64,000 bases of DNA from Aquitalea magnusonii (lineage in GTDB: Bacteria > Pseudomonadota > Gammaproteobacteria > Burkholderiales > Chromobacteriaceae): the NCBI RefSeq assembly GCF_003202035.1, contig NZ_QJKC01000015.1, forward strand, positions 1 to 64,000, given 5' to 3'. Shown here piece after piece: positions 15,253-52,894 of the stretch. Made by a program: the position numbers and the translations under genes. The notes under the pieces are model-generated. The model searched no databases. It was not told the origin of the DNA and saw nothing but the letters and a program-made list of their open reading frames with translations. Position 1 is the first letter of the stretch, and the number at the start of each line of letters is the position of its first letter.

Positions 15253-15884
15253 GCATGTACACGGTAAAGGAAATCTTCTATACCCTGCAGGGCGAAGGCC
15301 GCCAGGCTGGCCGCGCCGCCGTGTTCTGCCGCTTTGCCGGCTGTAATCTGTGGTCGGGCCGCGAGGAAGACCGCAGCAAAGCCGTCTGCCAGTTCTGTGA
15401 TACCGACTTTGTCGGCACCGGTCCGGACGGCGGCAAATTCGCCAGCGCCGCCGAACTGGCTGCGCGCATTGCCAGTGAATGGCCAGCCGGCAGCGGCGGC
15501 ACGCCCTATGTGGTATGCACCGGTGGTGAGCCGCTATTGCAGCTGGACGCCGAGCTGATCGCTGCCCTGCATGCCGAGGGCTTTGAAATCGCGGTGGAAA
15601 CAAATGGCACCATCGCCGCCCCGGCAGGTATTGACTGGATCTGCGTCAGCCCCAAGGCGGGTGCACCCTTGCTGCAAACCAGCGGCAACGAGCTGAAGCT
15701 GGTCTACCCGCAAGCCACCCAGCTACCGGAAACCGTCGCCCACTTGCAGTTCGACACTTTCTACCTGCAGCCGATGGACGGACCGGAGCTGGCAGCCAAT
15801 ACCCGCGCCGCCATTGCCTACTGCATGGCCCATCCGCGCTGGCGGCTGTCGGTGCAGACGCACAAGGTGGTCAACATCCGTTAA
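15249..15884 (+). CDS. queE: 7-carboxy-7-deazaguanine synthase (radical SAM)
   Basis: A 211-residue QueE. The N-terminal YTVKEIFYTLQGEGRQAGRA and FCRFAGCNLW precede the QueE-type cluster motif, in which the first cysteine is followed by a 14-residue insert and then CQFCDTDF, instead of the usual CX3CX2C. VCTGGEPLLQLD is the SAM-binding GGE motif. It converts 6-carboxytetrahydropterin to 7-carboxy-7-deazaguanine. The start codon overlaps the queD stop (ATGA), indicating translational coupling; a second Met two codons later is an alternative. A strong terminator follows. Confidence 0.95.
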   Translation: MSMYTVKEIFYTLQGEGRQAGRAAVFCRFAGCNLWSGREEDRSKAVCQFCDTDFVGTGPDGGKFASAAELAARIASEWPAGSGGTPYVVCTGGEPLLQLDAELIAALHAEGFEIAVETNGTIAAPAGIDWICVSPKAGAPLLQTSGNELKLVYPQATQLPETVAHLQFDTFYLQPMDGPELAANTRAAIAYCMAHPRWRLSVQTHKVVNIR

Positions 15885-15888
15885 ACCG

Positions 15889-15917
15889 TCGGGCGCCTGG
15901 TCGCCCGATTTTTTTTT
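15889..15917 (+). terminator. Intrinsic terminator of the que operon
   Basis: TCGGGCG (15889-15895) pairs perfectly with CGCCCGA (15902-15908) around a 6-nt loop, followed by nine or more T. Confidence 0.93.
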
Positions 15918-16140
15918 GCCTGTCATTGTAAGAAGCCGACAGTAAGGCCGACTTATGCTGCAGAGACGGTCACGCAGCAGGCTTGCGGGAAACATCGTTG
16001 AAATTTTTGCAACAGCAGCCAAGCGCAGCGAAATGCAAATAATTTCAAAAAATTTTCCGCCACCGTGTAAGAAAGCCCCGGCCCGCGCGACTGACTCCTG
16101 AAACCCGGCACTTGCCGCTACCCCCCGACAGGAGATTGAC

Positions 16141-16407
16141 ATGAACGCTTCCAAGACCTTGCTTGCTTCCGCCCTCGGTGCTGTCGTTACCCTGGCCGCC
16201 CTGGCCGCCGCACCGGCCCAGGCCGCCGAACAGGAAAAATGCTATGGCGTGGCCATGGCCGGCATGAACGACTGCGCCTCCGCCACCGGCGTGCATGGCT
16301 GTAAAGGCCAGGCCACCATGGACAAGGACCCGGGCGACTGGAAGCTGGTAGCCAAGGGCAGCTGCCAACAGATGGGTGGCAATACCATGGCACCAATGAA
16401 ACAATAA
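16141..16407 (+). CDS. Bufferin precursor, BufA1/DUF2282 family (copy 1)
   Basis: An 88-residue secreted peptide precursor. Residues 1-28 are a Sec signal peptide (basic start, hydrophobic core, cleavage likely at AQA-AE). The mature part has four cysteines at 34, 45, 54 and 75 in the BufA1 (DUF2282) pattern: EKCYG, NDCAS, HGCKGQ, KGSC. In the bufferin family the MNIO enzyme modifies core cysteines to thiooxazoles, and the exported product binds copper. RBS AGGAGA precedes the ATG. It is the first gene of the cluster bufA-bufA-bufB-bufC-doxX. The symbol is withheld because two copies exist. Confidence 0.9.
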   Translation: MNASKTLLASALGAVVTLAALAAAPAQAAEQEKCYGVAMAGMNDCASATGVHGCKGQATMDKDPGDWKLVAKGSCQQMGGNTMAPMKQ

Positions 16408-16435
16408 ACAGTCTATCTTTAACATGACGTACGCC

Positions 16436-16456
16436 GGGTAGCCCGCCAGGCTGCCC
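16436..16456 (+). promoter_or_regulatory. Hairpin between the two bufferin precursor genes
   Basis: GGGTAGCC (16436-16443) and GGCTGCCC (16449-16456) pair with one G-U, and the flanking GCCG/CGGC extends the stem with a small internal loop. No U-tract follows, so it is more likely an RNA stabiliser or processing site than a terminator. Confidence 0.5.
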
Positions 16457-16516
16457 GATCCGGCGCAAATGGCTCACCATAAAACCCGCTTGAACCTGCC
16501 TCAAAGGAGAATCACC

Positions 16517-16771
16517 ATGAATGTATCCAAAGCCCTGCTTGCCACCGCCCTCGGTACCGTTGTCGCCATGGGCGCCCTGAGCGCCACCCCGGCCGCCGCT
16601 GCCGACAAGGAAAAATGCTTCGGCATCGCCCAGGCTGGCAAGAACGACTGCGCTTCCGCCACCGGCACCCACTCCTGCGCCGGCCAGGCCACCAAGGACA
16701 AGGATCCGGGCGACTGGAAATACGTTGCCAAGGGCAGCTGTGAAAAAATGGGCGGCATGCTGGCCAAGTAA
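16517..16771 (+). CDS. Bufferin precursor, BufA1/DUF2282 family (copy 2)
   Basis: An 84-residue paralogue of the previous precursor with the same layout: a signal peptide to about residue 29 ([10 protein letters not shown]) and four cysteines at exactly the same positions 34, 45, 54 and 75 (EKCFG, NDCAS, HSCAGQ, KGSC). The block [15 protein letters not shown] is nearly identical between the copies. The ATG at 16517 with AAGGAGA upstream is preferred over an in-frame ATG at 16469, which would put charged residues before the signal peptide. The two copies differ mainly in the C-terminal tail, which suggests duplication. Expected periplasmic or exported copper-binding product. Confidence 0.9.
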
Positions 16772-16784
16772 TCCGCCCCGGCAT

Positions 16785-16808
16785 GGTTGCCGGCCCGCGC
16801 CGGCAACC
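16785..16808 (+). terminator. Perfect GC-rich hairpin between bufA copy 2 and bufB (attenuator)
   Basis: GGTTGCCGGC (16785-16794) and GCCGGCAACC (16799-16808) form a 10-bp perfect stem with a 4-nt loop, followed by TTCCCTTC. The weak T-rich tail suggests partial termination or a stabilised precursor mRNA, so that peptide is made in excess over the modifying enzyme. Confidence 0.65.
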
Positions 16809-16840
16809 TTCCCTTCACCTCCCTTCCGGTAAACCTGGTC

Positions 16841-17671
16841 ATGACTCCGTCTTCCCTTCCCGCCGTCGCCGGCATCGGCTTGCGCGCACCCCACTATCGT
16901 CAGGTCATGGACACCCTGCCGCCACTAGGCTGGGTGGAAGTCCACAGCGAAAACTTTTTCGATGGCGGCATGCCCTTGGCCATGCTGCAGCGGGTGGCCA
17001 GCCACTATCCGCTGTCGCTGCACGGCGTGGGACTGGGACTGGGTTCGCTGGTACGTCCGGACGGAGAGCATCTGGCCGCCCTCAAGCGGCTGGTGGATGC
17101 CATCAAGCCGCCCGCGGTATCGGAACACCTGTCGTTCAACCACAGTGCCCAGCGCTATGTGAACGACCTGCTGCCCATCCCCTATACCATGGCCTCGCTG
17201 GCGGTGATTGCCAGCCATGTGGATGAAACGCAGCAGGCGCTGGGACGGCGCATCCTGCTGGAAAACCTGTCCAGCTATGTGGAGTTTCCCGGCAACGAGA
17301 TGAACGAAGGCGAGTTTCTGGCCGAACTGGTGGCCCGCACCGGCTGTGGTCTGCTGCTGGACGTCAACAATCTCTACGTCAACGGCATCAATCTGGGCAC
17401 GGACGTGCAGGCCGTACTCTCTGCGCTACCCGCAGCGGCGATTGGCGAAATCCACCTGGCCGGCTATAGCGAGGGCGAAGGCATGCTGGTGGACACCCAC
17501 AGCCAGCCGGTGCATCCCGGCGTATGGCAGCTGTACGCCCAGGTCATCACCAGCATCGGCCCGCGCCCGACGCTGATTGAGTGGGACCTGGACATTCCGC
17601 CACTGGACACGCTGCAGGCCGAAGCAGCCAAGGCCGACACCATCCTGCAAGGAGCACGCCATGACGCCTGA
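16841..17671 (+). CDS. bufB: BufB, multinuclear non-heme iron oxidative enzyme (MNIO, DUF692)
   Basis: A 276-residue DUF692 protein with a TIM-barrel pattern. Conserved blocks that carry the metal ligands of MNIO enzymes are visible: EVHSENFFDGG (residues 33-43), LHGVGLGLG (60-68), VSEHLSFN, ENLSSY, LLLDVNNLYVN, EIHLAGY, DTHSQPVH and EWDLDIPP. Family members carry two or three irons and oxidise precursor cysteines; in bufferin systems they form thiooxazoles with BufC as partner. The ATG at 16841 is used; an earlier in-frame ATG at 16787 lies inside the upstream hairpin. It overlaps bufC by 11 bp. Confidence 0.92.
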   Translation: MTPSSLPAVAGIGLRAPHYRQVMDTLPPLGWVEVHSENFFDGGMPLAMLQRVASHYPLSLHGVGLGLGSLVRPDGEHLAALKRLVDAIKPPAVSEHLSFNHSAQRYVNDLLPIPYTMASLAVIASHVDETQQALGRRILLENLSSYVEFPGNEMNEGEFLAELVARTGCGLLLDVNNLYVNGINLGTDVQAVLSALPAAAIGEIHLAGYSEGEGMLVDTHSQPVHPGVWQLYAQVITSIGPRPTLIEWDLDIPPLDTLQAEAAKADTILQGARHDA

Positions 17672-18410
17672 AGCACGCTGGCAGGCAGAGCTGCTGGAGC
17701 TGATCGCCCATACCGCGCAGCAGCCGGATGCCGCTCTGGGCCTGCGCCCGGCCGGACTGGCGGTCTATCGCAACAACTACCGCGTCGGCCTGATCGAAAC
17801 CCTCAAGATGATCTATCCGGTGACCGGCCAGATCGTCGGCGAGGAATTCATGACCGGGCTGGCCCGTGAATACAGCAAGCAGCACGCCTCATACAGTGGC
17901 AATCTGCACCGCTATGGCGGCAGCTTTGGTGATTTCCTGCAGGACTTCCCGCCGGCACAGACACTGCCTTATCTGGCCGATGTGGCCCGGCTGGAATGGG
18001 CAGTGCACCGCAGCTATTACGCCATCGACCAGACCCCGCTGACGGCCAGCGCGCTGACGGACATCCATCCGGAACAGTTCGGCCAGCTGCGCTTCGCTTT
18101 TTGCGACAGCAGCCGCGCATTGTCATCCCGCTGGCCGGTGGTCTCGATCTGGCAGGGACACCAACCCGGACAGACGCTGAATGTGAACCTGGAGGCCGGC
18201 GGCGAACCGGCACTGGTCAGCCGCCACGCCGGCAAGGTCCGGGTGCAGGCAGAAACGGCCGGCATGGCCGCACTATTGCTGGCGCTGCAGGATGGCCAGC
18301 CGCTGGGCGAGGCCGCCGGGCAGGCCCTGGCAGCACAGGATGATTTCGATCTGCAAGCCGGGCTGGCACGGCTGTTTGCCGATGGCCTGCTCAGCCACTA
18401 CCAACTGTAA
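17661..18410 (+). CDS. bufC: BufC, partner protein of the MNIO enzyme (DUF2063)
   Basis: A 249-residue protein. The N-terminal half is the DUF2063 domain: LGLRPAGLAVYRNNYRVGLI, then LKMIYPVTGQIVGEEFMTGL and YGGSFGDFLQDFP, with LPYLADVARLEWAVHRSYYA at the end of the domain. The C-terminal part is a small mixed domain. In MNIO systems this partner binds the precursor leader and docks it to BufB. AAGGAG precedes the ATG, which lies inside the end of bufB, so the two are translationally coupled. Confidence 0.9.
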   Translation: MTPEARWQAELLELIAHTAQQPDAALGLRPAGLAVYRNNYRVGLIETLKMIYPVTGQIVGEEFMTGLAREYSKQHASYSGNLHRYGGSFGDFLQDFPPAQTLPYLADVARLEWAVHRSYYAIDQTPLTASALTDIHPEQFGQLRFAFCDSSRALSSRWPVVSIWQGHQPGQTLNVNLEAGGEPALVSRHAGKVRVQAETAGMAALLLALQDGQPLGEAAGQALAAQDDFDLQAGLARLFADGLLSHYQL

Positions 18411-18479
18411 AACCACGCAGGCAGCCCATCCGCCAGCACGCGGAGGGACGCGGCTTGCCCACCTCACGGGAGACCGACC

Positions 18480-18947
18480 ATGCAAGTTCTCAGACAAAAA
18501 CTGCTGCCGCTGCAGCGGCTGTTCGACCAGGCCAGTCACACCGCCCGTCCGCTGGTGCTGCTGCTGTTCCGGCTGTGGGTGGCCAATGTGTTTTTCAAAT
18601 CCGGCCTGACCAAGCTGGAGGACTGGGACACCACGCTATTGCTGTTTTCCAATGACTACCATGTGCCGCTGCTGCCACCCGCGCTGGCCGCGGTGATGGG
18701 CACCTTTGGCGAAACGGTGTTTTCCAGCCTGCTGGTGGCCGGCCTGTTTGGCCGCTTTGCCGCCGCCGGGCTGTTCGTGGTCAACCTGATGGCCGTCATC
18801 AGCTATCCCGACCTCACCGACATCACCCGCCAGTTCCACTACTACTGGGCCATGCTGCTGCTGACCCTGTTTGCTTTCGGCCCCGGCTGCCTGTCGCTGG
18901 ATGCCGCCTGGCGGAGCTGGCGCGGCAAGCCGCGCTTGCCGGCCTGA
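18480..18947 (+). CDS. DoxX-family membrane protein of the bufferin cluster
   Basis: A 155-residue inner-membrane protein with four predicted spans. DoxX features are ARPLVLLLFRLWVANVFFKSGL, FGETVFSSLLVAGLFGRFAA and a C-terminal span FHYYWAMLLLTLFAFGPGCLSLD. DoxX proteins are a usual fifth gene of bufferin clusters; their role there is not established and may be redox or metal handling at the membrane. A GGGAG precedes the ATG, 69 bp after bufC. Confidence 0.85.
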   Translation: MQVLRQKLLPLQRLFDQASHTARPLVLLLFRLWVANVFFKSGLTKLEDWDTTLLLFSNDYHVPLLPPALAAVMGTFGETVFSSLLVAGLFGRFAAAGLFVVNLMAVISYPDLTDITRQFHYYWAMLLLTLFAFGPGCLSLDAAWRSWRGKPRLPA

Positions 18948-19069
18948 AGCCTGCGGGCAGGCCCGGCGCGGCACCAGCCGCCGCCAGCCTGCCCTGATAC
19001 ACGGGCATTCCGGCAGACTGCCCGGCAGTGGCATAATGGCGTATTGCCCAACTCCACATCCGCCCGCCC

Positions 19070-19912
19070 ATGTCTCTTACCCTCGTCATCCAGTCCCCCC
19101 GTCTCGACAGCAAGGAATTGCAGGAACTGGCCGCACTGGCCGGTGCCAGCCGCATCAGCCAGCCCTCGCTCGAATGTGCCCGGCTGGAGCAGGCCGACCC
19201 GGCCAGCCGTGATGCCATCAGCGCCTGCTGCCAGGCCCTGGGCTACGACTTCGCCTTTGTCGACAGCAGCCTGCAGCTGGCCAACTTCGGCCTGCTGGTG
19301 TCCGATATGGACTCCACCCTGATCACCATCGAGTGCATCGACGAAATCGCCGACATGCAGGGCATCAAGCCGCAGGTGGCCGCCATTACCGAACGCTCGA
19401 TGCGTGGCGAACTGGACTTCTCCGCCTCGCTGCGCGAACGGGTGAGCCTGCTGGCCGGCCTGCCGGAAAGCGCGCTGGAAAAGGTCTATAAAGAACGCCT
19501 GCAACTGAGCCCCGGCGCCGAGCAGCTGCTGGCCAGCTGCAAGGAAAACGGCATCCGCTTCATGCTGGTTTCCGGCGGTTTCACCTTCTTTACCGAAAAA
19601 CTCAAGCAGCAACTGGGTCTGGACTACGCCTACGCCAACCAGCTGGAAGTGGTGGACGGCAAACTGACCGGCCGCGTGGTGGGCGAGATAGTCGACGCCG
19701 CCGCCAAGCAGCGCCTGCTGATTGAAAAACGCACACAACTGGGCTTGCGCCCGGATCAGGTCATCGCCATGGGTGATGGCGCCAACGACCTGCTGATGCT
19801 GGGAGAGGCCGGCGTCGGCATCGCCTACCGCGCCAAGCCGGTGGTGCAGGCCCAGGCCGATGTGGCCATCAATGTCATGGGGCTGGACGGCGTCAGCAGA
19901 CTGTTCGCCTGA
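19070..19912 (+). CDS. serB: Phosphoserine phosphatase
   Basis: A 280-residue SerB of the haloacid dehalogenase superfamily. An N-terminal domain (about 1-80) is followed by the catalytic DMDSTLITIECIDEIADMQG, then MLVSGGFTFF (motif II), and AMGDGANDLLMLGEAGVGIA (motif III) with the metal-binding aspartate. It hydrolyses phosphoserine to serine in the last step of serine synthesis. The length is usual for the two-domain form. It is followed closely (23 bp) by a small gene of unknown role. Confidence 0.95.
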   Translation: MSLTLVIQSPRLDSKELQELAALAGASRISQPSLECARLEQADPASRDAISACCQALGYDFAFVDSSLQLANFGLLVSDMDSTLITIECIDEIADMQGIKPQVAAITERSMRGELDFSASLRERVSLLAGLPESALEKVYKERLQLSPGAEQLLASCKENGIRFMLVSGGFTFFTEKLKQQLGLDYAYANQLEVVDGKLTGRVVGEIVDAAAKQRLLIEKRTQLGLRPDQVIAMGDGANDLLMLGEAGVGIAYRAKPVVQAQADVAINVMGLDGVSRLFA

Positions 19913-43187: not shown

Positions 43188-44093
43188 ATGAAGGATCTGC
43201 TGCAGCTTGAAGATTTGCGGGTATTTTGCCTGGTCGTGCGCAAGGGCGGATTTGCTGCGGCCGCCGAAGCCATGGCCGCCTCGCCGGCCTATGTCAGCAA
43301 ACGCATTCGCGTGCTGGAGCAATGCCTGGATTGTCGTCTGCTGGACCGCACCACCCGGCGCATCGCCATGACCGAGCGGGGAGAACGCATCTACCAATGG
43401 GCGGGCAAAATACTGCAGGACGTGGAACAGATGAGCGTGGAGATCGGGAGTGCGCGGGAGCAGCCGCGCGGCATCATCCGCATCAGCAGCAGCTTTGGTT
43501 TTGGCCGGGTGCATCTGGCACCGGCACTGGGCGAACTGGCAGGACACTACCCGGAGCTGAACATCCGCTTCGAAGTGGCCGATTGTCTGATCGACCTGGC
43601 CCAAGAAGGCATCGACCTGGACATCCGCGTGGGCAACGAGATTGCCCCGCAGCTACTGGCGCGCAAGCTGGCGGATAACCGACGCATCCTGTGTGCGGCG
43701 CCGGCTTATGTGGCAAGACATGGCGCTCCGGCCACGCTCAATGCACTGAGCCGGCACAATTGCCTGGTCATCAAGGAAAGGGATCATCCCTTCGGGGTAT
43801 GGCGGCTGACCGGCCCGCAAGGGGAATGCAGCATCCGGGTGCAGGGTGCGCTGGCGGCCAACCATGGCGAAGTGGTACACCAGTGGGCCTTGCAGGGCCA
43901 CGGCATCATGTTGCGCTCGCTATGGGATGTGGCCGGCGAGCTGGAACGGGGAGAACTGGTACGGGTATTGCCCGATTACTACCTGCAGGCTGATATCTGG
44001 GCAGTGTATCCGGAAAAGCTGGCCAGCTCGGCCAAGCTGCGTGTCTGTGTCGAATTCATCCAGCAGTATTTCCGGCGCAGCCGGCTGGCGTGA
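43188..44093 (+). CDS. dmlR: LysR-family regulator, DmlR-like
   Basis: A 301-residue LysR regulator. HTH residues 8-66: LEDLRVFCLVVRKGGFAAAA, then SPAYVSKRIRVLEQCLDCRL. The effector domain (RISSSFGFGRVHLAPALGEL, EGIDLDIRVGNE) is of the DmlR/CrgA branch. It is divergent from dmlA over 110 bp, exactly like dmlR (yeaT) and dmlA in E. coli, so I expect it to activate the operon in response to D-malate or a carnitine product. The ATG at 43188 (MKDLLQLEDL) is used instead of an upstream TTG. Confidence 0.85.
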   Translation: MKDLLQLEDLRVFCLVVRKGGFAAAAEAMAASPAYVSKRIRVLEQCLDCRLLDRTTRRIAMTERGERIYQWAGKILQDVEQMSVEIGSAREQPRGIIRISSSFGFGRVHLAPALGELAGHYPELNIRFEVADCLIDLAQEGIDLDIRVGNEIAPQLLARKLADNRRILCAAPAYVARHGAPATLNALSRHNCLVIKERDHPFGVWRLTGPQGECSIRVQGALAANHGEVVHQWALQGHGIMLRSLWDVAGELERGELVRVLPDYYLQADIWAVYPEKLASSAKLRVCVEFIQQYFRRSRLA

Positions 44094-44128
44094 TGCCAGC
44101 CCGTCGCTGCATTTGCCGGCCCGCGCCG

Positions 44129-44344
44129 CTATTTCGGCTTGCGCAAGCTGGCCGGGGTATGGCCGGCCGGGCTGTCCGGCCCGTCTTCATCCTCATCATC
44201 CTCAGCCGCATAGGGCTGCGGCTTGACACCAGGCAGGTCGACTGGCGGCGGGGCCTTGGACAGTCTGGCCAGTGAACCGATGGTGGACATCACCAGCGCC
44301 ACGATGACAAACAGCCAGAACCAGGTGGAATGCAGAATATCCAT
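44129..44344 (-). CDS. Small single-pass membrane protein, acidic tail
   Basis: A 71-residue protein with one transmembrane helix (FWLFVIVALVMSTIGSLARL, residues 8-28) and a proline- and acid-rich cytoplasmic tail (AAEDDEDEDGPDS). AAGGAAGAGG just before the ATG is a very strong ribosome site, which supports the call. It lies 65 bp downstream of hemB on the same strand and ends close to the convergent dmlR-like gene. I do not recognise a family and cannot assign a role. Confidence 0.6.
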   Translation of the reverse strand: MDILHSTWFWLFVIVALVMSTIGSLARLSKAPPPVDLPGVKPQPYAAEDDEDEDGPDSPAGHTPASLRKPK

Positions 44345-44409
44345 GGCCTCTTCCTTCAAGGGTTCTCCTGCCAGCGGCCGGCAGGCATCCGGCCGCTGGC
44401 AAGCAAAGC

Positions 44410-45570
<1,161 letters not shown>

Positions 45571-45758
45571 TCAGGAAAAATCATACCAAGCATTCTTGTC
45601 ACTCATGGCGGCTGGCGCTAAATGTTGTGTAAAAACAGCATTTTTATAAGACAAAATGTCTAATTTGCCAAAATGCAACAGTTAAAATACTTAGCAAAAC
45701 GCGGGTTCATGCTGAAAAACAACAATGAAAAACAATATTCACCGGATGGACATTGAAC

Positions 45759-45788
45759 TTTAAAACAAACACAAGTATTTGTTTTAAA
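45759..45788. repeat. Perfect 11-bp inverted repeat in the AT-rich region
   Basis: TTTAAAACAAA (45759-45769) and TTTGTTTTAAA (45778-45788) form a perfect inverted repeat around an 8-nt loop. The right arm overlaps TTGTTTTAAAACAA (45779-45792), itself a palindrome. It lies about 220-250 bp before the porin start and may be a regulator site. Confidence 0.55.
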
Positions 45789-45959
45789 ACAATAAAATAA
45801 AACAAAACACATGAAATTAGTCCATTTGCACTGATTAATTAGGCAAGTTCTCATGGCAATTTGTTAATAAATGTTCGTTGACGGTTACAAAGGTGTTTCG
45901 CACACTCAGCCCCGTTGGTGAAATCAAGTTTTCACATGGCTTGCTTTACACCGCGCCCA

Positions 45960-45982
45960 GCCTGCCAACAGATCAGGCAGGC
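45960..45982 (+). promoter_or_regulatory. Hairpin in the porin 5' leader
   Basis: GCCTGCC (45960-45966) pairs with GGCAGGC (45976-45982), about 20 nt before the ribosome site AAAGGA and 30 nt before the ATG. A stem at this spot could stabilise the mRNA of an abundant porin or be a target for a small RNA. Confidence 0.45.
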
Positions 45983-46011
45983 CAGAAAAAACTACTAAAG
46001 GATTTAGAGGA

Positions 46012-47121
46012 ATGAAAAAACTCGTACTCGTTGCTGCCATCGCAGCCGCCATGCCGGTACTGGCCCAGGCCGACGTGACCATCTACGGCTCGATCCGTGC
46101 CGGTCTGGACAGCATGAAAAGCACTGATACCAACTTCAAGTCGAGCACGGGTGTAGACGACTTTGCCAGCCGTATCGGTTTCAAGGGAAGCGAAGACCTG
46201 GGTAATGGTCTGAAAGCCATATGGCAGGTTGAAACCGGCCTGAACGTTGATGGTGTTGCCACCAGCGGTACCGGTTCCGGCACCTTTGCCAACCGCACCA
46301 GCTTTGTTGGCGTGGAAGGCAACTTCGGTAAGGTTCGTCTGGGCTACATCGACGATGTTCTGGGTGAAACCGAGTCCACCGACAACCTGTACGGCCCGCG
46401 TCGCGATGCCAGCACCGGCATGGCCTTCCCGCTGTATGAAGGCACGGATGTTTTCGGTGCCTATGGTGATGGCCGCGTAAAAAACGGCGTGCGCTATGAC
46501 AGCCCAGACCTGAACGGCTTCAATGCCATGGTTCACCTCGGTTCCGGTGAAGCACAAGCCGCTGGCGGCAAGAAAACCGGCAACACCCTGGGTACCCGTC
46601 TGGCCTACGCCAATGCCGGCTTCTTCGGTGCCTATGCCTACATGGCCAAGTACAACACCGTGGCAGACCACAACAGCGGTGTACATCGCGTTGAATTCGG
46701 TTACGACGCCAACAACCTCTACCTGGCTGCCACTTTGCAGAAAACCACCCTGTGGGGCGATGCATGGGCCAAGAACACCGATGGCAGCTATGCTGTTTCC
46801 GGTATTGCTGGCACTACCATTGCCAATACCGGTGCCAACAAGCTGACCAGCCGCTCCTGGGCACTCAATGCGGCCTACACCATCGGCGCCTTCAAGCCGT
46901 CTTTTGTGTACTCCAAGCGTAGCAGCGTGAAAGTGGACGGCCAGTCGCAAGACTGGGGTGCCAGCCAGTGGGCTGCCGCACTGGATTACACCCTGAGCAA
47001 GCGCACCATGGTTGAAGCCGGTTACGGTCAGGTGAAAGAAGACAAGGGCGCGCAAACCGCTCAGGGCTGGGCGCAGGACAAGGCCACCATTACCTGGCTG
47101 ATGCTGAAGCACAACTTCTAA
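46012..47121 (+). CDS. Gram-negative porin (Neisseria PorB-type)
   Basis: A 369-residue outer-membrane trimeric porin. Residues 1-19 are a signal peptide (MKKLVLVAAIAAAMPVLAQA). The mature start DVTIYGSIRAGLDSM, then SRIGFKGSEDLGNGLKAIWQ and NRTSFVGVEGNFGKVRLGYI (the last ending before loop 3), are typical of beta-proteobacterial general porins. The chain ends with LMLKHNF, whose terminal Phe is the assembly signal. It forms a 16-strand diffusion channel. The gene stands alone with a strong terminator and a long regulatory region. Confidence 0.93.
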   Translation: MKKLVLVAAIAAAMPVLAQADVTIYGSIRAGLDSMKSTDTNFKSSTGVDDFASRIGFKGSEDLGNGLKAIWQVETGLNVDGVATSGTGSGTFANRTSFVGVEGNFGKVRLGYIDDVLGETESTDNLYGPRRDASTGMAFPLYEGTDVFGAYGDGRVKNGVRYDSPDLNGFNAMVHLGSGEAQAAGGKKTGNTLGTRLAYANAGFFGAYAYMAKYNTVADHNSGVHRVEFGYDANNLYLAATLQKTTLWGDAWAKNTDGSYAVSGIAGTTIANTGANKLTSRSWALNAAYTIGAFKPSFVYSKRSSVKVDGQSQDWGASQWAAALDYTLSKRTMVEAGYGQVKEDKGAQTAQGWAQDKATITWLMLKHNF

Positions 47122-47160
47122 GCTGTGCTGCCTGGCTGGTTCCTTTGAAGAAAGTTCTTT

Positions 47161-47188
47161 GCCACCGCCTGGTCGCGGTGGCTTTTTT
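47161..47188 (+). terminator. Intrinsic terminator of the porin gene
   Basis: GCCACCGC (47161-47168) pairs with GCGGTGGC (47175-47182) around a 6-nt loop, followed by TTTTTT. Confidence 0.92.
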
Positions 47189-47212
47189 CATTTCGTCGTC
47201 CGGCACAGGCTC

Positions 47213-47243
47213 AAAAAACAAAACCCCCGGAAAACCGGGGGTT
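47213..47243 (-). terminator. Intrinsic terminator of dnaJ (minus strand)
   Basis: AACCCCCGG (47222-47230) pairs with CCGGGGGTT (47235-47243) around AAAA. On the minus strand it is followed by TTTTGTTTTTT. Confidence 0.9.
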
Positions 47244-47286
47244 GTTCAACAAGGTCTGTACGCAGGGCCAGACGCGGTTTGCCAGC

Positions 47287-48414
47287 TTACTCGAAGAAAT
47301 CGCGCAGCTTGTCCATGAAGGATTTGGAGCGCGGATTATGCATGGCCACGTCGCCCTGACTGATGGCTTCAAATTCGCGCAGCAATTCTTTCTGGCGCTC
47401 GGTCAGCTTGACCGGGGTTTCCACCACCACATGGCAGTGCAGATCGCCATAGTCGGTGCCACGTACCGCTTTCACGCCCTTGCCACGCAGACGGTATACC
47501 CGGCCGCTTTGCGTTTCGGCAGCAATCTTCACCTTGGCCATGCCATCCAGGGTGGGGATTTCCACCTCGCCACCCAATGCTGCTGTCGCGAAGGAAATCG
47601 GCATCTCGCAATGCAGGTCCATGCCATCGCGCTGGAACACCGCATGCTGCTTGATGTGAGTGACCACATACAAATCACCAGCCGGGCCGCCATTCTGCCC
47701 CGGCTCGCCTTCGCCGGACAGGCGGATGCGGTCGCCCTCGTCCACGCCAGCCGGAATCTTCACGTTCAGGGTCTTGGTGGTCTTCTTCTGACCAGCACCA
47801 TGGCAGCTGGTGCAAGGATCGCTGATCTGCTTGCCGGTGCCGTGGCAGGTCGGGCAGGTTTGCTGGATGGAGAAGAAGCCCTGGCTCATGCGTACCTGAC
47901 CATGGCCACCGCAGGTGGAGCAGGTCTTGGGCTGGGTGCCCGGCTTGGCACCGGTGCCGTGGCACACTTCGCAGTCTTCATGCGAGGGGATGCGGATCTG
48001 CTTTTCGCAGCCACGCGCCGCTTCTTCCAGCGAAATATCCAGGTTATAGCGCAGGTCGGCACCACGATAGACATTGGAACGGCCACCGCCCGCACCGCCC
48101 CGGCCACCGCCGAAGATGTCGCTGAAAATATCGGCGAAATCGCCAAAGCCACCAAAACCGGCACCACCGCCACCAGCGCCGGCTTGCGGATCTACCCCGG
48201 CATGGCCGAACTGGTCGTAGGCGCCACGTTTCTGGCTGTCAGAGAGGATTTCATAGGCCTCTTTGACTTCCTTGAATTTCTCTTCGGCTTCCTTGCTGTC
48301 CGGATTGCGGTCCGGGTGATATTTCATCGCCAGCTTGCGGTATGCCTTTTTGATGTCGTCCTCGGAAGCATCGCGATTGACGCCGAGCACATCATAAAAA
48401 TCTCTTTTGGACAT
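47287..48414 (-). CDS. dnaJ: Chaperone protein DnaJ (Hsp40)
   Basis: A 375-residue type I Hsp40. The J-domain has [10 protein letters not shown] with HPD (residues 33-35). A Gly/Phe-rich stretch with [20 protein letters not shown] follows. The zinc domain has four repeats: [24 protein letters not shown] and CTSCHGAG. The C-terminal substrate domains follow. It delivers unfolded clients to DnaK and stimulates its ATPase. It is downstream of dnaK on the same strand, separated by 129 bp with a hairpin. Confidence 0.97.
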
Positions 48415-48477
48415 GGTGTTTCACTCTCTGGCCGCGACCAGCGGTGCGGCAGGCAATGATCTTCTTGATACGGCAAA

Positions 48478-48519
48478 GGCACAGAGGCCGGTGGAGCAGT
48501 CTCCGCCATTCCCTGTGCC
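48478..48519 (-). promoter_or_regulatory. Hairpin in the dnaK-dnaJ intergenic region
   Basis: GGCACAG (48478-48484) pairs with CTGTGCC (48513-48519); inside, GGTGGAG (48490-48496) pairs with CTCCGCC (48501-48507) with one wobble. No U-tract follows on the minus strand, so it may act as an mRNA stabiliser, processing site or weak attenuator that sets the DnaK:DnaJ ratio. Confidence 0.55.
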
Positions 48520-48543
48520 TCGTTCAGTCAGCAAGCCTGTGGC

Positions 48544-50463
48544 TTACTTTTTGTCTTTTACTTCTTCGAACTCGGCATCCACCACATCGCCTTCGTCCTT
48601 GGCCTTGCCGGCATCGGCGGCACCCTGACCCGCCTCAGCCTGCTGTGCCTGGGCATACATGATTTCGCCCAGCTTCTGGCTGGCCTTGGCCAGTTCTTCG
48701 GTCTTGGCTTCGATCACTGCCTTGTCTTCGCTCTTCACCACTTCTTCCGCGGCTTTGACAGCGTCTTCGATCTTGGCCTTTTCCGCGGCGTCGATCTTGT
48801 CGCCGTGCTCTGCCAGCGACTTCTTCACGCTGTGGATCAGACCTTCGGCCTGGTTGCGGGCAGTCACCAGCTCGTGCAGCTTCTTGTCTTCCTCGGCATT
48901 GGCTTCGGCATCCTTCACCATGCGCTGGATTTCCTCTTCCGACAGACCGGAAGAAGCCTGGATGGTGATGTTGGCCTGCTTGCCGCTGGCCTTGTCCTTG
49001 GCCGATACGTGCAGGATACCGTTGGCATCGATGTTGAATTCCACTTCGATCTGCGGAATGCCACGCGGTGCCGGCGGAATGTCACCCAGATTGAACTGGC
49101 CCAGGCTCTTGTTGGCGGCAGCCTTTTCACGCTCGCCTTGCAGCACATGGATGGTCACCGCAGTCTGGTTGTCATCCGCCGTGGAGAAGGTTTGCGATGC
49201 CTTGGTCGGGATCGTGGTGTTCTTCTGGATCAGCTTGGTCATCACGCCGCCCAGGGTTTCGATACCCAGCGACAGCGGGGTCACGTCCAGCAGCAGCACG
49301 TCTTTGCGGTCACCCGACAGTACCGAACCCTGGATCGCTGCACCAACGGCCACGGCTTCATCCGGGTTCACGTCCTTGCGCGGTTCCTTGCCGAAGAATT
49401 CCTTAACGGCATCCTGTACTTTCGGCATACGGGTCTGACCACCCACCAGAATCACGTCGGTGATGTCGGACAACGATACGCCAGCATCCTTCAATGCCAC
49501 GCGGCACGGTTCGATGGAGCGGGTGATCAGGTCGTCAACCAGGCTTTCGAACTTGGCGCGGGTAATCTTCATCGCCAGGTGCTTCGGACCGGTGGCATCC
49601 ATGGTGATGTACGGCAGGTTCACCTCGGTCTGGGTGGCGCTGGACAGCTCGATCTTGGCTTTTTCAGCGGCTTCCTTCAGACGCTGCAGGGCCATTACAT
49701 CGTTCTTCAGGTCCACGCCCTGTTCGCGCTTGAATTCGGTCACGATGTAGTCGATCAGGCGCTGGTCGAAGTCTTCACCGCCCAGGAAGGTGTCACCGTT
49801 GGTGGACAGCACTTCGAACTGGTGCTCGCCGTCAACGTCGGCGATTTCGATGATGGAGACGTCGAAGGTACCGCCACCCAGGTCGTATACGGCGATCTTG
49901 CGGTCACCTTCCTGCTTGGCCAGACCAAAGGCCAGGGCAGCTGCGGTCGGTTCGTTGATGATGCGCTTCACTTCCAGGCCGGCGATACGACCGGCATCCT
50001 TGGTGGCCTGACGCTGGCTGTCGTTGAAGTAGGCCGGTACGGTGATCACCGCTTCGGTCACTTCTTCACCCAGGTAGTCTTCGGCAGCCTTTTTCATCTT
50101 GCGCAGTACTTCTGCGGAGATTTGCGGTGGAGCCAGTTCCTGATCGCGTACCTTGACCCAGGCGTCGCCATTGGGCGCCTTCATGATCTGGAAAGGCATC
50201 AGGTCGATGTCTTTTTGTACTTCCTTGTCTTCAAAGCGGCGACCGATCAGGCGCTTGGCGGCGTACAGGGTGTTTTTCGGGTTGGTGACAGCCTGACGCT
50301 TGGCCGGTGCGCCAACCAGGATTTCGCCATCGTCCAGATAAGCGATGATGGACGGGGTGGTGCGTGCGCCTTCGGCGTTTTCAATGACTTTCGGGTTGCC
50401 GCCTTCAACTACGGCTACGCAGGAGTTGGTGGTGCCCAGATCGATACCAATGATTTTGCCCAT
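48544..50463 (-). CDS. dnaK: Chaperone protein DnaK (Hsp70)
   Basis: A 639-residue Hsp70. [20 protein letters not shown] is the phosphate-1 loop, [14 protein letters not shown] and [15 protein letters not shown] follow in the ATPase domain, then [20 protein letters not shown] at the linker and peptide-binding domain. The acidic tail ends [11 protein letters not shown]. It refolds proteins with DnaJ and GrpE. Upstream is grpE (132 bp), with a possible sigma-32 -35 element CTTGAA (minus strand, 50558-50563) but a poor -10. Confidence 0.98.
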
Positions 50464-50595
50464 ATTCCTTATTCCTTTATCTCAATTCGTTGCGACTGCG
50501 GCCAAACGCTGATAGCCGTGGCCTGTTGTTTTCATAGGTATTGGCTATGCTGTCTTTTTCAAGTGGCTGCCAAGAACCTTTTTATGACTCTCGTG

Positions 50596-51141
50596 TCAGG
50601 CTTTGGCCTTGGCCACGATCACCATGGCCGGACGCAGCGTGCGCTCAGCCAGTTGATAGCCTTTTTGCAGCACCCGTAACACCGTATTGGCTTCAGCGTC
50701 GGATTCTTCCGCGCTCATGGCCTGGTGTAGATGCGGATCCAGCTTGTCGCCTACCGCCGGGGAGATTTCCTTGATCTGTACCTTGTCAAAGGCGGCCACC
50801 AGTTGCTTCAGCGTCATGTCCACGCCCATCTTCAGGGTGTCGATCTGGCCGCTCTGATCCAGCAGCGCCATTTCCAGGTAGTCCTTTACCGGCACCAGCT
50901 CCTGGGCAAACTTGTTGATGGCGTACTTCTGGGTATTAAGCAGCTCTTCGGCATTGCGACGACGCTGGTTTTCCTGATCGGCACGGCTGCGCAGCAGTTG
51001 ATCCTGCAGTTCGGCAAGCTGTGCCTCCAGTGCGGCGATGCGCTGTTCGGCGGTTTGCTCGACAGTCTGTTCGCTGGCTGCTGCGTTGATGGTTTCGTCG
51101 ACCGCGGCTTCGTTGGTCGCGTTGTTCTGGTTTTCCTGCAT
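50596..51141 (-). CDS. grpE: Nucleotide exchange factor GrpE
   Basis: A 181-residue GrpE. A Gln/Asn/Ala-rich N-terminus leads into a long coiled coil ([20 protein letters not shown]), then [20 protein letters not shown], and the C-terminal beta domain has [20 protein letters not shown] and [20 protein letters not shown]. It releases ADP from DnaK. It is first in grpE-dnaK-dnaJ, divergent from aceA. A heat-shock promoter lies upstream. Confidence 0.97.
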
Positions 51142-51187
51142 GGCAAGACCTCAAGTGAATCAGCTTTTAACGATGTCCCGATGCCAG

Positions 51188-51213
51188 ATAAGGTCTCTCT
51201 GCGGGAATTCAAG
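51188..51213 (-). promoter_or_regulatory. Candidate sigma-32 promoter of grpE
   Basis: On the minus strand CTTGAA (51213-51208) is followed after 14 bp by CCTTAT (51193-51188), close to the heat-shock consensus CTTGAA-N11-15-CCCCAT. The start of grpE is about 50 nt downstream. Confidence 0.6.
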
Positions 51214-51403
51214 TCCCGGTTCTTGCCCAGGGTTCACAACCGCTGTGACCAGCGCTCACCGCACAGTGCGTTTTCGGACTTTTCTTTTCGCAACTGCAAC
51301 AAAAACTGGGCGATCAATTATTCATTTTTCGCCACAATTGTCACCTTCTGAACATCGTGTTTTTTTCGGTGTTGCACCGCACACAAGCGATTTTTTTTGT
51401 GCT

Positions 51404-51409
51404 TATAAT
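51404..51409 (+). promoter_or_regulatory. Consensus -10 box of aceA
   Basis: TATAAT at 51404-51409 is a perfect -10 hexamer, with no good -35 box 16-18 bp upstream, which suggests activator dependence. It gives a leader of about 180 nt before the aceA ATG. Confidence 0.5.
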
Positions 51410-51595
51410 GGGCCACACACGCTGAATGACCCACCCGAGCAAAGCCGTTATCCGCGGGCTTTTGGTGGTCAGAACGGGCAACAGGCAAAAACCGTTGTCA
51501 ACAAAATCACTCCGGAAAAACCGGAATGTCATTTGGCCAGAGGATTGCCGGAATTCACCGGACTGCAGAGAAAACTATTCGAGAAGGGTTTGAAC

Positions 51596-52894
51596 ATGAC
51601 TACTCGCGAACAACGTATCGCCGCCATTCAACATGACTGGGACACCAACCCGCGCTGGAAAGGTATCAAGCGTGGTTACACCGCCGCCGACGTAGAGCGT
51701 CTGCGTGGTTCGGTGCAAGTGGAACACACCCTGGCCCGCCAAGGCGCCGAGAAACTGTGGAACCTGGTCAACAACGAACCCTACATCAACTGTCTGGGCG
51801 CCCTGACCGGTGGTCAGGCCATGCAGCAGGTCAAGGCTGGCATCAAGGCCATCTACCTGTCCGGCTGGCAAGTGGCTGCTGACAACAACGAATACTCCGC
51901 CATGTACCCGGACCAATCGCTGTATCCGGTTGACTCGGTGCCGAAGGTGGTGGAGCGTATCAACAATGCCTTTACCCGCGCCGACGAAATCCAGCACTCC
52001 AAGGGTGTGGAAAAAGGCCAGCCGGGCTTTGTTGACTACTACGCGCCCATCGTGGCCGATGCCGAAGCCGGTTTCGGTGGCGTACTGAACGCCTACGAAC
52101 TGATGAAGGCCATGATCCGCGCTGGCGCGGGTGGCGTACACTTCGAAGACCAACTGGCCTCGGTGAAGAAATGTGGCCACATGGGCGGCAAGGTACTGGT
52201 ACCGACCCAGGAAGCCATCCAGAAGCTGATCGCCGCCCGTATGGCTGCCGACGTGTACGGCGTGCCGACCCTGGTGATTGCCCGTACCGACGCAGAAGCT
52301 GCTGACCTGATCACCAGCGACTACGACGCCAACGACAAGCCTTTCCTGACTGGCGAGCGCACTGCCGAAGGCTTCTACAAGACCAAGAAGGGTCTGGAAC
52401 AAGCCATCAGCCGCGCCGTGGCCTACGCTGACTACGCCGACCTGGTATGGTGCGAAACCGGTACGCCGGATCTGGAATTTGCCCGCAAGTTTGCCGAAGC
52501 GGTACACGCCAAGCACCCGGGCAAGCTGCTGGCCTACAACTGCTCGCCGTCCTTCAACTGGAAGAAGAACCTGGACGATGCCACCATCGCCAAGTTCCAG
52601 CGCGAACTGGGTGCCATGGGCTACAAATACCAGTTCATCACTTTGGCTGGTATCCACAACATGTGGTACAACATGTACGACCTGGCACAAGACTACGTTG
52701 CCCGCGGCATGTCGGCTTATGTGGAAAAGGTACAAGAACCGGAATTCGCCGCTCGCGAACGTGGCTACACCTTCGTATCCCACCAGCAGGAAGTGGGCAC
52801 CGGCTACTTCGACGACATCACCACCGTGATCCAGGGCGGCCAGTCCAGCGTGACCGCGCTGACCGGTTCCACCGAAGAAGAGCAGTTCCACTAA
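51596..52894 (+). CDS. aceA: Isocitrate lyase
   Basis: A 432-residue isocitrate lyase. The catalytic cysteine lies in [14 protein letters not shown], the metal region in [20 protein letters not shown], and [20 protein letters not shown] is the conserved C-terminal block. It cleaves isocitrate to glyoxylate and succinate, the first step of the glyoxylate shunt. The ATG at 51596 ([10 protein letters not shown]) has GAGAAGG upstream and matches the family start. aceB is 3.9 kb downstream on the same strand, separated by three genes; no aceK is present. Confidence 0.97.

What the first reader, a model, noticed from the sequence alone, without database searches (positions are those of the whole stretch)
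16141..18947. Complete bufferin-type (copper RiPP) cluster with two tandem precursors
Two secreted peptides of 88 and 84 residues keep four cysteines at identical positions (34, 45, 54, 75). They are followed by a DUF692 MNIO enzyme, a DUF2063 partner that overlaps it by 11 bp, and a DoxX protein. This is the known bufferin layout, where core cysteines become thiooxazoles that bind copper. The duplicate precursors differ most outside the shared DKDPGDWK block, so they might yield two products. No ECF sigma/anti-sigma pair, usual in some relatives, is nearby, so its control is open.
Basis: partly seen in the sequence, partly recalled or inferred. Interest (0 to 1): 0.75.

Follow-up and report, generated by a model that had tools for sequence, protein, structure and literature searches.

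The report
Copper-peptide cluster with remote sigma control
This is a bufferin cluster, a known kind of gene set that makes copper-binding peptides; its two peptide genes have diverged and both been kept, and its supposedly missing switch is probably a stress sigma factor encoded elsewhere in the genome.

Summary
Window 16141-18947 holds two DUF2282 (Buf1) precursors, an MNIO (BufB), a DUF2063 partner and DoxX. Bufferins and tandem precursors are already published (PMC12452194 section 14), so the cluster is a new member of a known kind.

Three things are added. (2) Two ECF-type promoters, TGTAAGAA-N14-CGAC, precede the operon in 10 of 10 genomes. (3) The likely reader is an ECF sigma with a zinc-finger (ZAS-type) anti-sigma on another contig. 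Among 33 family genomes with bufA the promoter is present in 26 of 27 with this sigma and 0 of 6 without (not corrected for descent). Homologous pairs adjoin bufferin genes in three other genomes, and the motif precedes msrA, msrB and msrP in relatives.

Chemistry, copper binding and sigma dependence could not be tested here.

The parts
15888..15917 (+). intrinsic terminator after queE, insulating the operon
   Evidence: terminator scan; stem and T run aligned in all 10 genus sequences
15927..15955 (+). P1, distal ECF-type promoter TGTAAGAA-N14-CGAC
   Evidence: 0.01 matches expected in the window, 2 found; conserved in 10 of 10 genus genomes
16066..16094 (+). P2, proximal ECF-type promoter TGTAAGAA-N14-CGAC, 75 nt from its first base to the bufA_1 ATG
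16141..16407 (+). bufA_1, Met-enriched Buf1 precursor, 88 aa
   Evidence: DUF2282 78.2 bits; 4-9 Met in the mature part in 10 genomes
16517..16771 (+). bufA_2, Buf1 precursor of the usual type, 84 aa
   Evidence: DUF2282 87.1 bits
16785..16808 (+). stem-loop between bufA_2 and bufB; role unknown
   Evidence: fold of 16769-16845 has z -2.65, 1 of 200 shuffles as good; the stretch is clearly present in only 5 of 10 aligned genomes
16841..17671 (+). bufB, MNIO bufferin maturase, 276 aa from the ATG
   Evidence: NCBIfam MNIO_BufB 354.4 against 310; nearest solved structure by sequence 3bww, E 3.5e-32
17661..18410 (+). bufC, DUF2063 partner of the MNIO, 249 aa
   Evidence: Pfam DUF2063; AlphaFold2 model, mean pLDDT 91.5, matches 8hi7/8hci (TglHI holoenzyme) and 3dee (NGO1945)
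18480..18947 (+). doxX, DoxX-family membrane protein, 155 aa
   Evidence: Pfam DoxX 57.3 bits

Best explanation
A Buf1 bufferin operon in an Aquitalea species. Shown by sequence: two four-Cys precursors with secretion-type N-termini, MNIO BufB, DUF2063 partner BufC, DoxX, and two tandem ECF-type promoters. Inferred: under metal or oxidant stress a cytoplasmic zinc-finger anti-sigma releases its ECF sigma factor (both encoded behind radA, sigma match at G000:C5:80448-80981, in trans); RNA polymerase with that sigma reads P1 and P2; BufBC converts the two central Cys (45, 54) of both peptides to thiooxazoles before Sec export; Cys34 and Cys75 form a disulphide; the peptides hold excess copper in the periplasm. 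The Met-enriched first peptide is a distinct product whose Met residues add copper ligands and/or oxidisable groups. In relatives the same promoter word also precedes methionine sulfoxide reductases, so the operon probably belongs to an envelope metal/oxidant-damage response.
For: Families over Pfam cut-offs and BufB over its NCBIfam cut-off; BufC fold. Promoter word twice, spacing 14, in 10 of 10 genus genomes; of 52 upstream regions before bufA genes 26 carry [TC]GTAA-N17-CGAC, against 38 of 15,600 shuffles, and spacing 17 gives 38 sites while each other spacing from 11 to 24 gives 0-3. In those 38 sites the third base after CGAC, not part of the search, is A in 38. Published ECF promoters of bufferin-type operons have the same build: Caulobacter sigmaF GTAACC-N16-CGAA, Neisseria sigmaE GTMAGBWTT-N12/13-CGTCTAAH. 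Own ECF: TIGR02943 250.5 bits against 162.2; its neighbour is an anti-sigma, NF052368 70.1 against 50, with Cys5, His31, Cys35, Cys38, the spacing of MseR Cys4, His30, Cys34, Cys37. Co-occurrence 26 of 27 against 0 of 6. ECF/ZAS homologues adjoin buf genes in G044, G040 and G024:C11. Met counts and dN/dS of 0.11 and 0.10.
Against: No expression data; no promoter was tested. Co-occurrence is not corrected for descent, and the 150-bit limit and the [TC] first base were chosen after seeing the data; G026 has the sigma but not the N17 site. The genome's own msrB has no site with up to 3 mismatches in about 550 nt upstream; own msrA and msrP were not checked. The only site in 5.7 kb around the own ecf lies inside the gene, so ordinary autoregulation is not seen. 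The linked loci of G040 and G052 showed no such site. The meningococcal homologue did not respond to peroxide, diamide or singlet oxygen. Modification and copper binding were not testable.
Confidence: 0.7

Rival explanations
1. Same bufferin operon, but the two boxes are read by another ECF sigma factor of the genome, or are sites of a copper-responsive transcription factor.
For: The genome has 18 Sigma70_r4_2 matches, 15 over the cut-off, and only the one ECF was profiled across genomes. The own ecf shows no external autoregulatory site.
Against: Fixed spacing, one orientation and a non-palindromic word fit a promoter better than an operator. The sigma tracks the site in 26 of 27 genomes against 0 of 6, and its homologues adjoin buf genes elsewhere. 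No sigma-70 promoter passed the strict scan of 15700-19200, which is weak evidence.
Confidence: 0.2
2. The two precursors are functionally redundant; the pair only raises dosage, and the Met enrichment of the first is neutral drift.
For: Both carry the four Cys and the shared DKDPGDWK block; one maturase serves both. Other genera manage with one precursor.
Against: 17 alignment columns separate the copies in at least 9 of 10 sequences each; Met42 and the Thr-Met-Ala-Pro-Met-Lys tail are fixed in the first copy; dN/dS is 0.11 and 0.10.
Confidence: 0.3
3. The operon works mainly against oxidants (for example hypochlorite) or other metals, copper binding being secondary.
For: The motif precedes msrA, msrB and msrP in relatives. 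Gold as well as copper induces the Legionella GIG operon (PMC5413113 passages); Caulobacter sigmaF, which drives two DUF2282 operons and YedY, acts in chromium and cadmium stress (PMC3511200 passages).
Against: [quoted passage not shown] No Msr gene of the window's own genome was shown to carry the site (msrB only).
Confidence: 0.25

Closest known systems
Buf1 (DUF2282) bufferin operons, type Caulobacter CC3254-CC3257 under sigmaF/NrsF
   Same: Precursor, MNIO, DUF2063 partner and DoxX in the same order (table); ECF-type promoter of the same build; Caulobacter sigmaF also drives an unlinked DUF2282 operon and YedY, so ECF control in trans is precedented.
   Different: Two diverged tandem precursors, the first Met-enriched; no NrsF in the genome; the candidate sigma has a ZAS-type anti-sigma; spacing is one base shorter.
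Neisseria sigmaE (Ecf)/MseR regulon: operon NMB2140-2145 and msrA/msrB
   Same: ECF with ZAS anti-sigma; -35 GTMAG, -10 CGTCTAA, 21-22 bases between box starts against GTAAG and CGACTNA, 21 bases here; methionine sulfoxide reductase among the targets (here in relatives).
   Different: The gonococcal counterpart makes an EGKCG-repeat peptide (gonophorin; PMC13097082 passages), not a DUF2282 peptide; there the sigma gene is in the operon, here it is in trans.
Captophorins / EGKCG peptides (fontiphorin, oxazolin, gonophorin)
   Same: MNIO with DUF2063 partner installing 5-thiooxazoles on Cys; copper binding.
   Different: Those have repeated Lys-Cys motifs; this belongs to the DUF2282 group.

Membership tests
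Buf1 bufferin cluster | precursor matching DUF2282 with four conserved Cys | tested here: met
   78.2 and 87.1 bits against 22.4; Cys 34, 45, 54, 75. No NCBIfam BufA model passes.
Buf1 bufferin cluster | Sec signal peptide on the precursor | tested here: inconclusive
   Hydrophobic N-terminus with an Ala-x-Ala-type end seen by eye in both; no predictor was run.
Buf1 bufferin cluster | MNIO maturase of the BufB kind | tested here: met
   NF050167 354.4 bits against 310.
Buf1 bufferin cluster | DUF2063 partner protein | tested here: met
   Pfam 70.6 against 27.2; fold like 3dee and TglHI entries. NCBIfam HvfC below its cut-off.
Buf1 bufferin cluster | DoxX gene (frequent, not universal) | tested here: met
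   Pfam 57.3 against 23.6.
Buf1 bufferin cluster | central Cys converted to thiooxazoles, outer Cys in a disulphide | not testable with these tools
   needs mass spectrometry or NMR
Buf1 bufferin cluster | copper binding and copper-stress phenotype | not testable with these tools
   needs bench work
ECF/ZAS (Neisseria sigmaE/MseR-like) control | ECF sigma and adjacent zinc-finger anti-sigma in the genome | tested here: met
   G000:C5, Sigma70_r2 and r4_2, TIGR02943; zf-HC2 and NF052368 antisigmaE over cut-off.
ECF/ZAS (Neisseria sigmaE/MseR-like) control | matching promoter before the operon | tested here: met
   two sites, 10 of 10 genomes; build compared with the published consensus
ECF/ZAS (Neisseria sigmaE/MseR-like) control | sigma gene linked to the peptide operon | tested here: not met
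   in trans here: buf on C15, sigma on C5; linked in G044, G040 and G024:C11
ECF/ZAS (Neisseria sigmaE/MseR-like) control | transcription depends on the sigma | not testable with these tools
   needs deletion strains
Caulobacter sigmaF/NrsF control | NrsF in the genome and a GTAACC-N16-CGAA promoter | tested here: not met
   no NrsF; TGTAACC-N16-CGAA seen before bufA only in L062 and L068 (g9) of the 40 loci scanned

The most novel reading that the evidence does not exclude
In this family one ZAS-type ECF regulon unites bufferins with periplasmic methionine-sulfoxide repair, and in Aquitalea the first bufferin has become a Met-rich, dual copper and oxidant sink. The anti-sigma gene may in addition be fed by a promoter hidden inside the sigma gene (TGTAA-N17-CGAC in 21 of 30 orthologues, 108 nt before the end of the coding sequence in 19 of those 21), closing a negative feedback loop.
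Probability: 0.28. Interest if true: 0.68.

Novelty: new member of a known kind. Interest (0 to 1): 0.43.

Why it matters
Many bufferin clusters have no sigma gene beside them, so their control is unassigned. A shared promoter word and a named trans-acting sigma/anti-sigma pair make that question directly testable in laboratory bacteria. It would also join copper-binding peptides and methionine-sulfoxide repair in one response, and it offers a natural pair of precursors for asking what one maturase tolerates and what extra Met residues do.

Tried and rejected
Rfam on the window: 0 matches at gathering score. tRNA: 0. Strict sigma-70 scan of 15700-19200: 0 promoters, 0.6 expected in shuffles. 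NrsF/sigmaF control: rejected for this genome. Gene-to-gene hairpins as regulators: the one at 16785 folds well but the stretch is clearly present in only 5 of 10 genomes. PDB sequence search: bufC 0 matches at E 0.001, bufA_2 only 2 unrelated chains at E 0.41 and 0.48.

I first took the motif inside the ecf genes for coding coincidence (it encodes a conserved stretch of the sigma), then one search suggested synonymous constraint. The full test (30 orthologues) is mixed: Ala158 is GCG in 29 of 29 and Cys151 TGT in 29 of 30, but Cys161, outside the motif, is TGT in 28 of 30, and 9 of 30 orthologues lack the motif. The 6 of 63 hits inside ecf genes are therefore not counted as support. The own msrB has no site.

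Paper views: PMC12452194 outline and abstract, passages, section 14 (24); PMC13097082 passages, section 11 (99); PMC12538549 passages; PMC3511200, PMC3240639, PMC7907618, PMC2893595 and PMC5413113 passages only. The founding bufferin paper (Leprevost et al.) was not seen. In the listings of searches I saw no title or abstract start describing ECF/ZAS control of a DUF2282 cluster in this family or a Met-rich Buf1. These listings are capped, the library lacks most subscription papers, and two listed papers that mention both subjects (PMC13192273, PMC6180224) were not opened.
Full report
1. The observation. Pfam gives DUF2282 twice, MbnB_TglH_ChrH, DUF2063 and DoxX, all over the curated cut-offs. 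NCBIfam names the MNIO a bufferin maturase, 354.4 bits against 310; no precursor, HvfC or HvfX model passes its cut-off. Both precursors have Cys at 34, 45, 54 and 75. bufB and bufC overlap by 11 bp, 17661-17671. The AlphaFold2 model of BufC (mean pLDDT 91.5) has three Foldseek hits with E at most 0.001: 8hi7 and 8hci (TglHI holoenzyme) and 3dee (NGO1945). The window's genome shows no other DUF2282 and no other MNIO, so both precursors probably depend on this one maturase.

2. Where it is. I searched 61 genomes for DUF2282 (45 have it) and fetched 40 loci. Of the 40, 16 show queE before and serB after the buf genes, 23 show serB and 18 queE, so in the family the cluster looks like an old resident. 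GC shows no break around it.

3. Two precursors. All 10 genus genomes searched have exactly two DUF2282 genes, in tandem. By the coordinates, 16 of the 45 genomes hold a tandem pair (my count: same strand, less than 500 nt apart). Tandem precursors are already in print (PMC12452194 section 14). In a tree of 58 rows the 10 first copies form a clade of their own (100/99); the 10 second copies are separated from them but group together with three g7 (Chromobacterium-genus) rows (95/76), and deeper forks are unresolved. dN/dS (Nei-Gojobori, 45 pairs each) is 0.11 and 0.10. The first copy has 4-9 Met in its mature part (10 sequences), the second 1-2 (10), and 38 other DUF2282 peptides 0-4, mean 1.34. 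Met42, Met83 and Met86 are fixed in the first copy (10 of 10), Lys42 in the second (10 of 10). In Buf1 the central Cys are the reported modification sites and the outer two form a disulphide; for this pair that means Cys45/Cys54 and Cys34/Cys75, by inference.

4. Promoters. Aligning 10 upstream regions showed TGTAAGAA and CGAC, twice each, amid varying sequence. The spacing is exactly 14 in both sites of all 10 genomes. In the window 2 matches stand against 0.01 expected, and 0 of 100 shuffles had 2. The same word lies before bufA in other genera. With TGTAAGAA-N14-CGAC, 61 genomes gave 59 matches against 14 for the reversed control; in the 10 genus genomes 34 against 1 (sums mine). A refined pattern taken from those sites, TGTAAKRA-N14-CGACYNA, gave 63 against 1. 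By downstream gene, of the 63: 28 bufA, 2 Buf2-type precursors, 9 msrA/msrB/msrP, 7 a Sel1-repeat gene, 7 an HD-domain gene (4 examined, 3 by near-identical site), 6 inside ecf genes, 4 others (ecf by coordinates). One example each of MsrB, MsrP, MsrA, Sel1 and HD and both Buf2-type peptides were checked against Pfam or NCBIfam; the rest are by eye. Among 38 sites found before bufA with [TC]GTAA-N17-CGAC, the third base after CGAC is A in 38 and the sixth base of the first box is G in 32; these sites are related, not independent. Of 52 upstream regions 26 carry the site, against 38 of 15,600 mononucleotide shuffles.

5. Which sigma. Published ECF promoters of bufferin-type operons are built alike: Caulobacter sigmaF GTAACC-N16-CGAA, Neisseria sigmaE GTMAGBWTT-N12/13-CGTCTAAH. 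The genome has no NrsF and no Sigma70_r4_2 match on this contig. It has an ECF of the TIGR02943 family, followed by a 59-residue zinc-finger anti-sigma and preceded by radA (by eye), on contig C5. Of 33 family genomes with bufA, the site is present in 26 of 27 with this sigma (at least 150 bits) and 0 of 6 without; Fisher p = 6e-6, uncorrected for descent, with limits set after seeing the data. The exception is G026; G024, at 133 bits, counts as 'without'. In G025 and G034 (g9) the bufA promoter is of sigmaF type and NrsF lies beside bufA. Homologues of the ECF/ZAS pair adjoin buf genes in G044 (a site between ZAS and bufA), G040 (no site seen) and G024:C11 (divergent, N18 sites on both sides); in G052 an ECF homologue adjoins bufA, but neither ZAS nor site was seen.

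6. Reading. I take this as a Buf1 operon under a ZAS-type ECF in trans. Shown: gene content, conserved promoter words, co-occurrence, linkage elsewhere. Inferred: sigma dependence, signal, modification, copper binding, the role of the extra Met. Against it: no expression data; own msrB without a site; the only site within 5.7 kb around the own ecf lies inside that gene; the signal is unknown, and meningococcal sigmaE did not respond to three oxidants.

7. Novelty. The cluster is a new member of a known kind, and ECF control in trans is precedented by Caulobacter sigmaF. What I did not see in print, within the listings of searches, is a ZAS-type ECF assigned to DUF2282 clusters of this family, and the Met-rich paralogue.

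Noticed in passing
L132 (G000:C5), inside the ecf gene, 108 nt before the end of its coding sequence: The promoter word recurs inside the sigma gene, just before the anti-sigma gene, in 21 of 30 orthologues; the synonymous-codon test is mixed. Possibly an internal promoter for the anti-sigma.
   Followed up: partly
L073 (G000:C7:83923-83951): The same promoter word stands 46-48 nt before the ATG of a Sel1-repeat protein with a secretion-type N-terminus in 7 of the 10 genus genomes.
   Followed up: partly
L074 (G000:C9:171547-171575) and L101 (G022:C2): The word also precedes an HD-domain (HD-GYP-like) gene in the window's genome and in another genus, hinting at a link to c-di-GMP turnover.
   Followed up: partly
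L207-L210 (G043): A genome without DUF2282 has four sites: before msrP, msrA, a DUF1223 gene and a cytochrome b561 gene.
   Followed up: partly
L051:2187-3125 (G015): A serine hydrolase that looks like a class A beta-lactamase (by eye) lies between bufA and bufB; this genome has only a distant ECF relative and no promoter word.
   Followed up: no
L125 (G031:C9:68890-68918): The word lies about 150 nt before a gene that looks by eye like a glutamate-cysteine ligase.
   Followed up: no
G019 contigs C13, C34, C36: A second DUF2282 gene appears with the same score on three contigs, with an ECF homologue at the same distance each time: recent copies or redundant assembly.
   Followed up: no
window 44001-52000: GC drops to about 0.57 from 0.60-0.66 in the rest of the window.
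   Followed up: no
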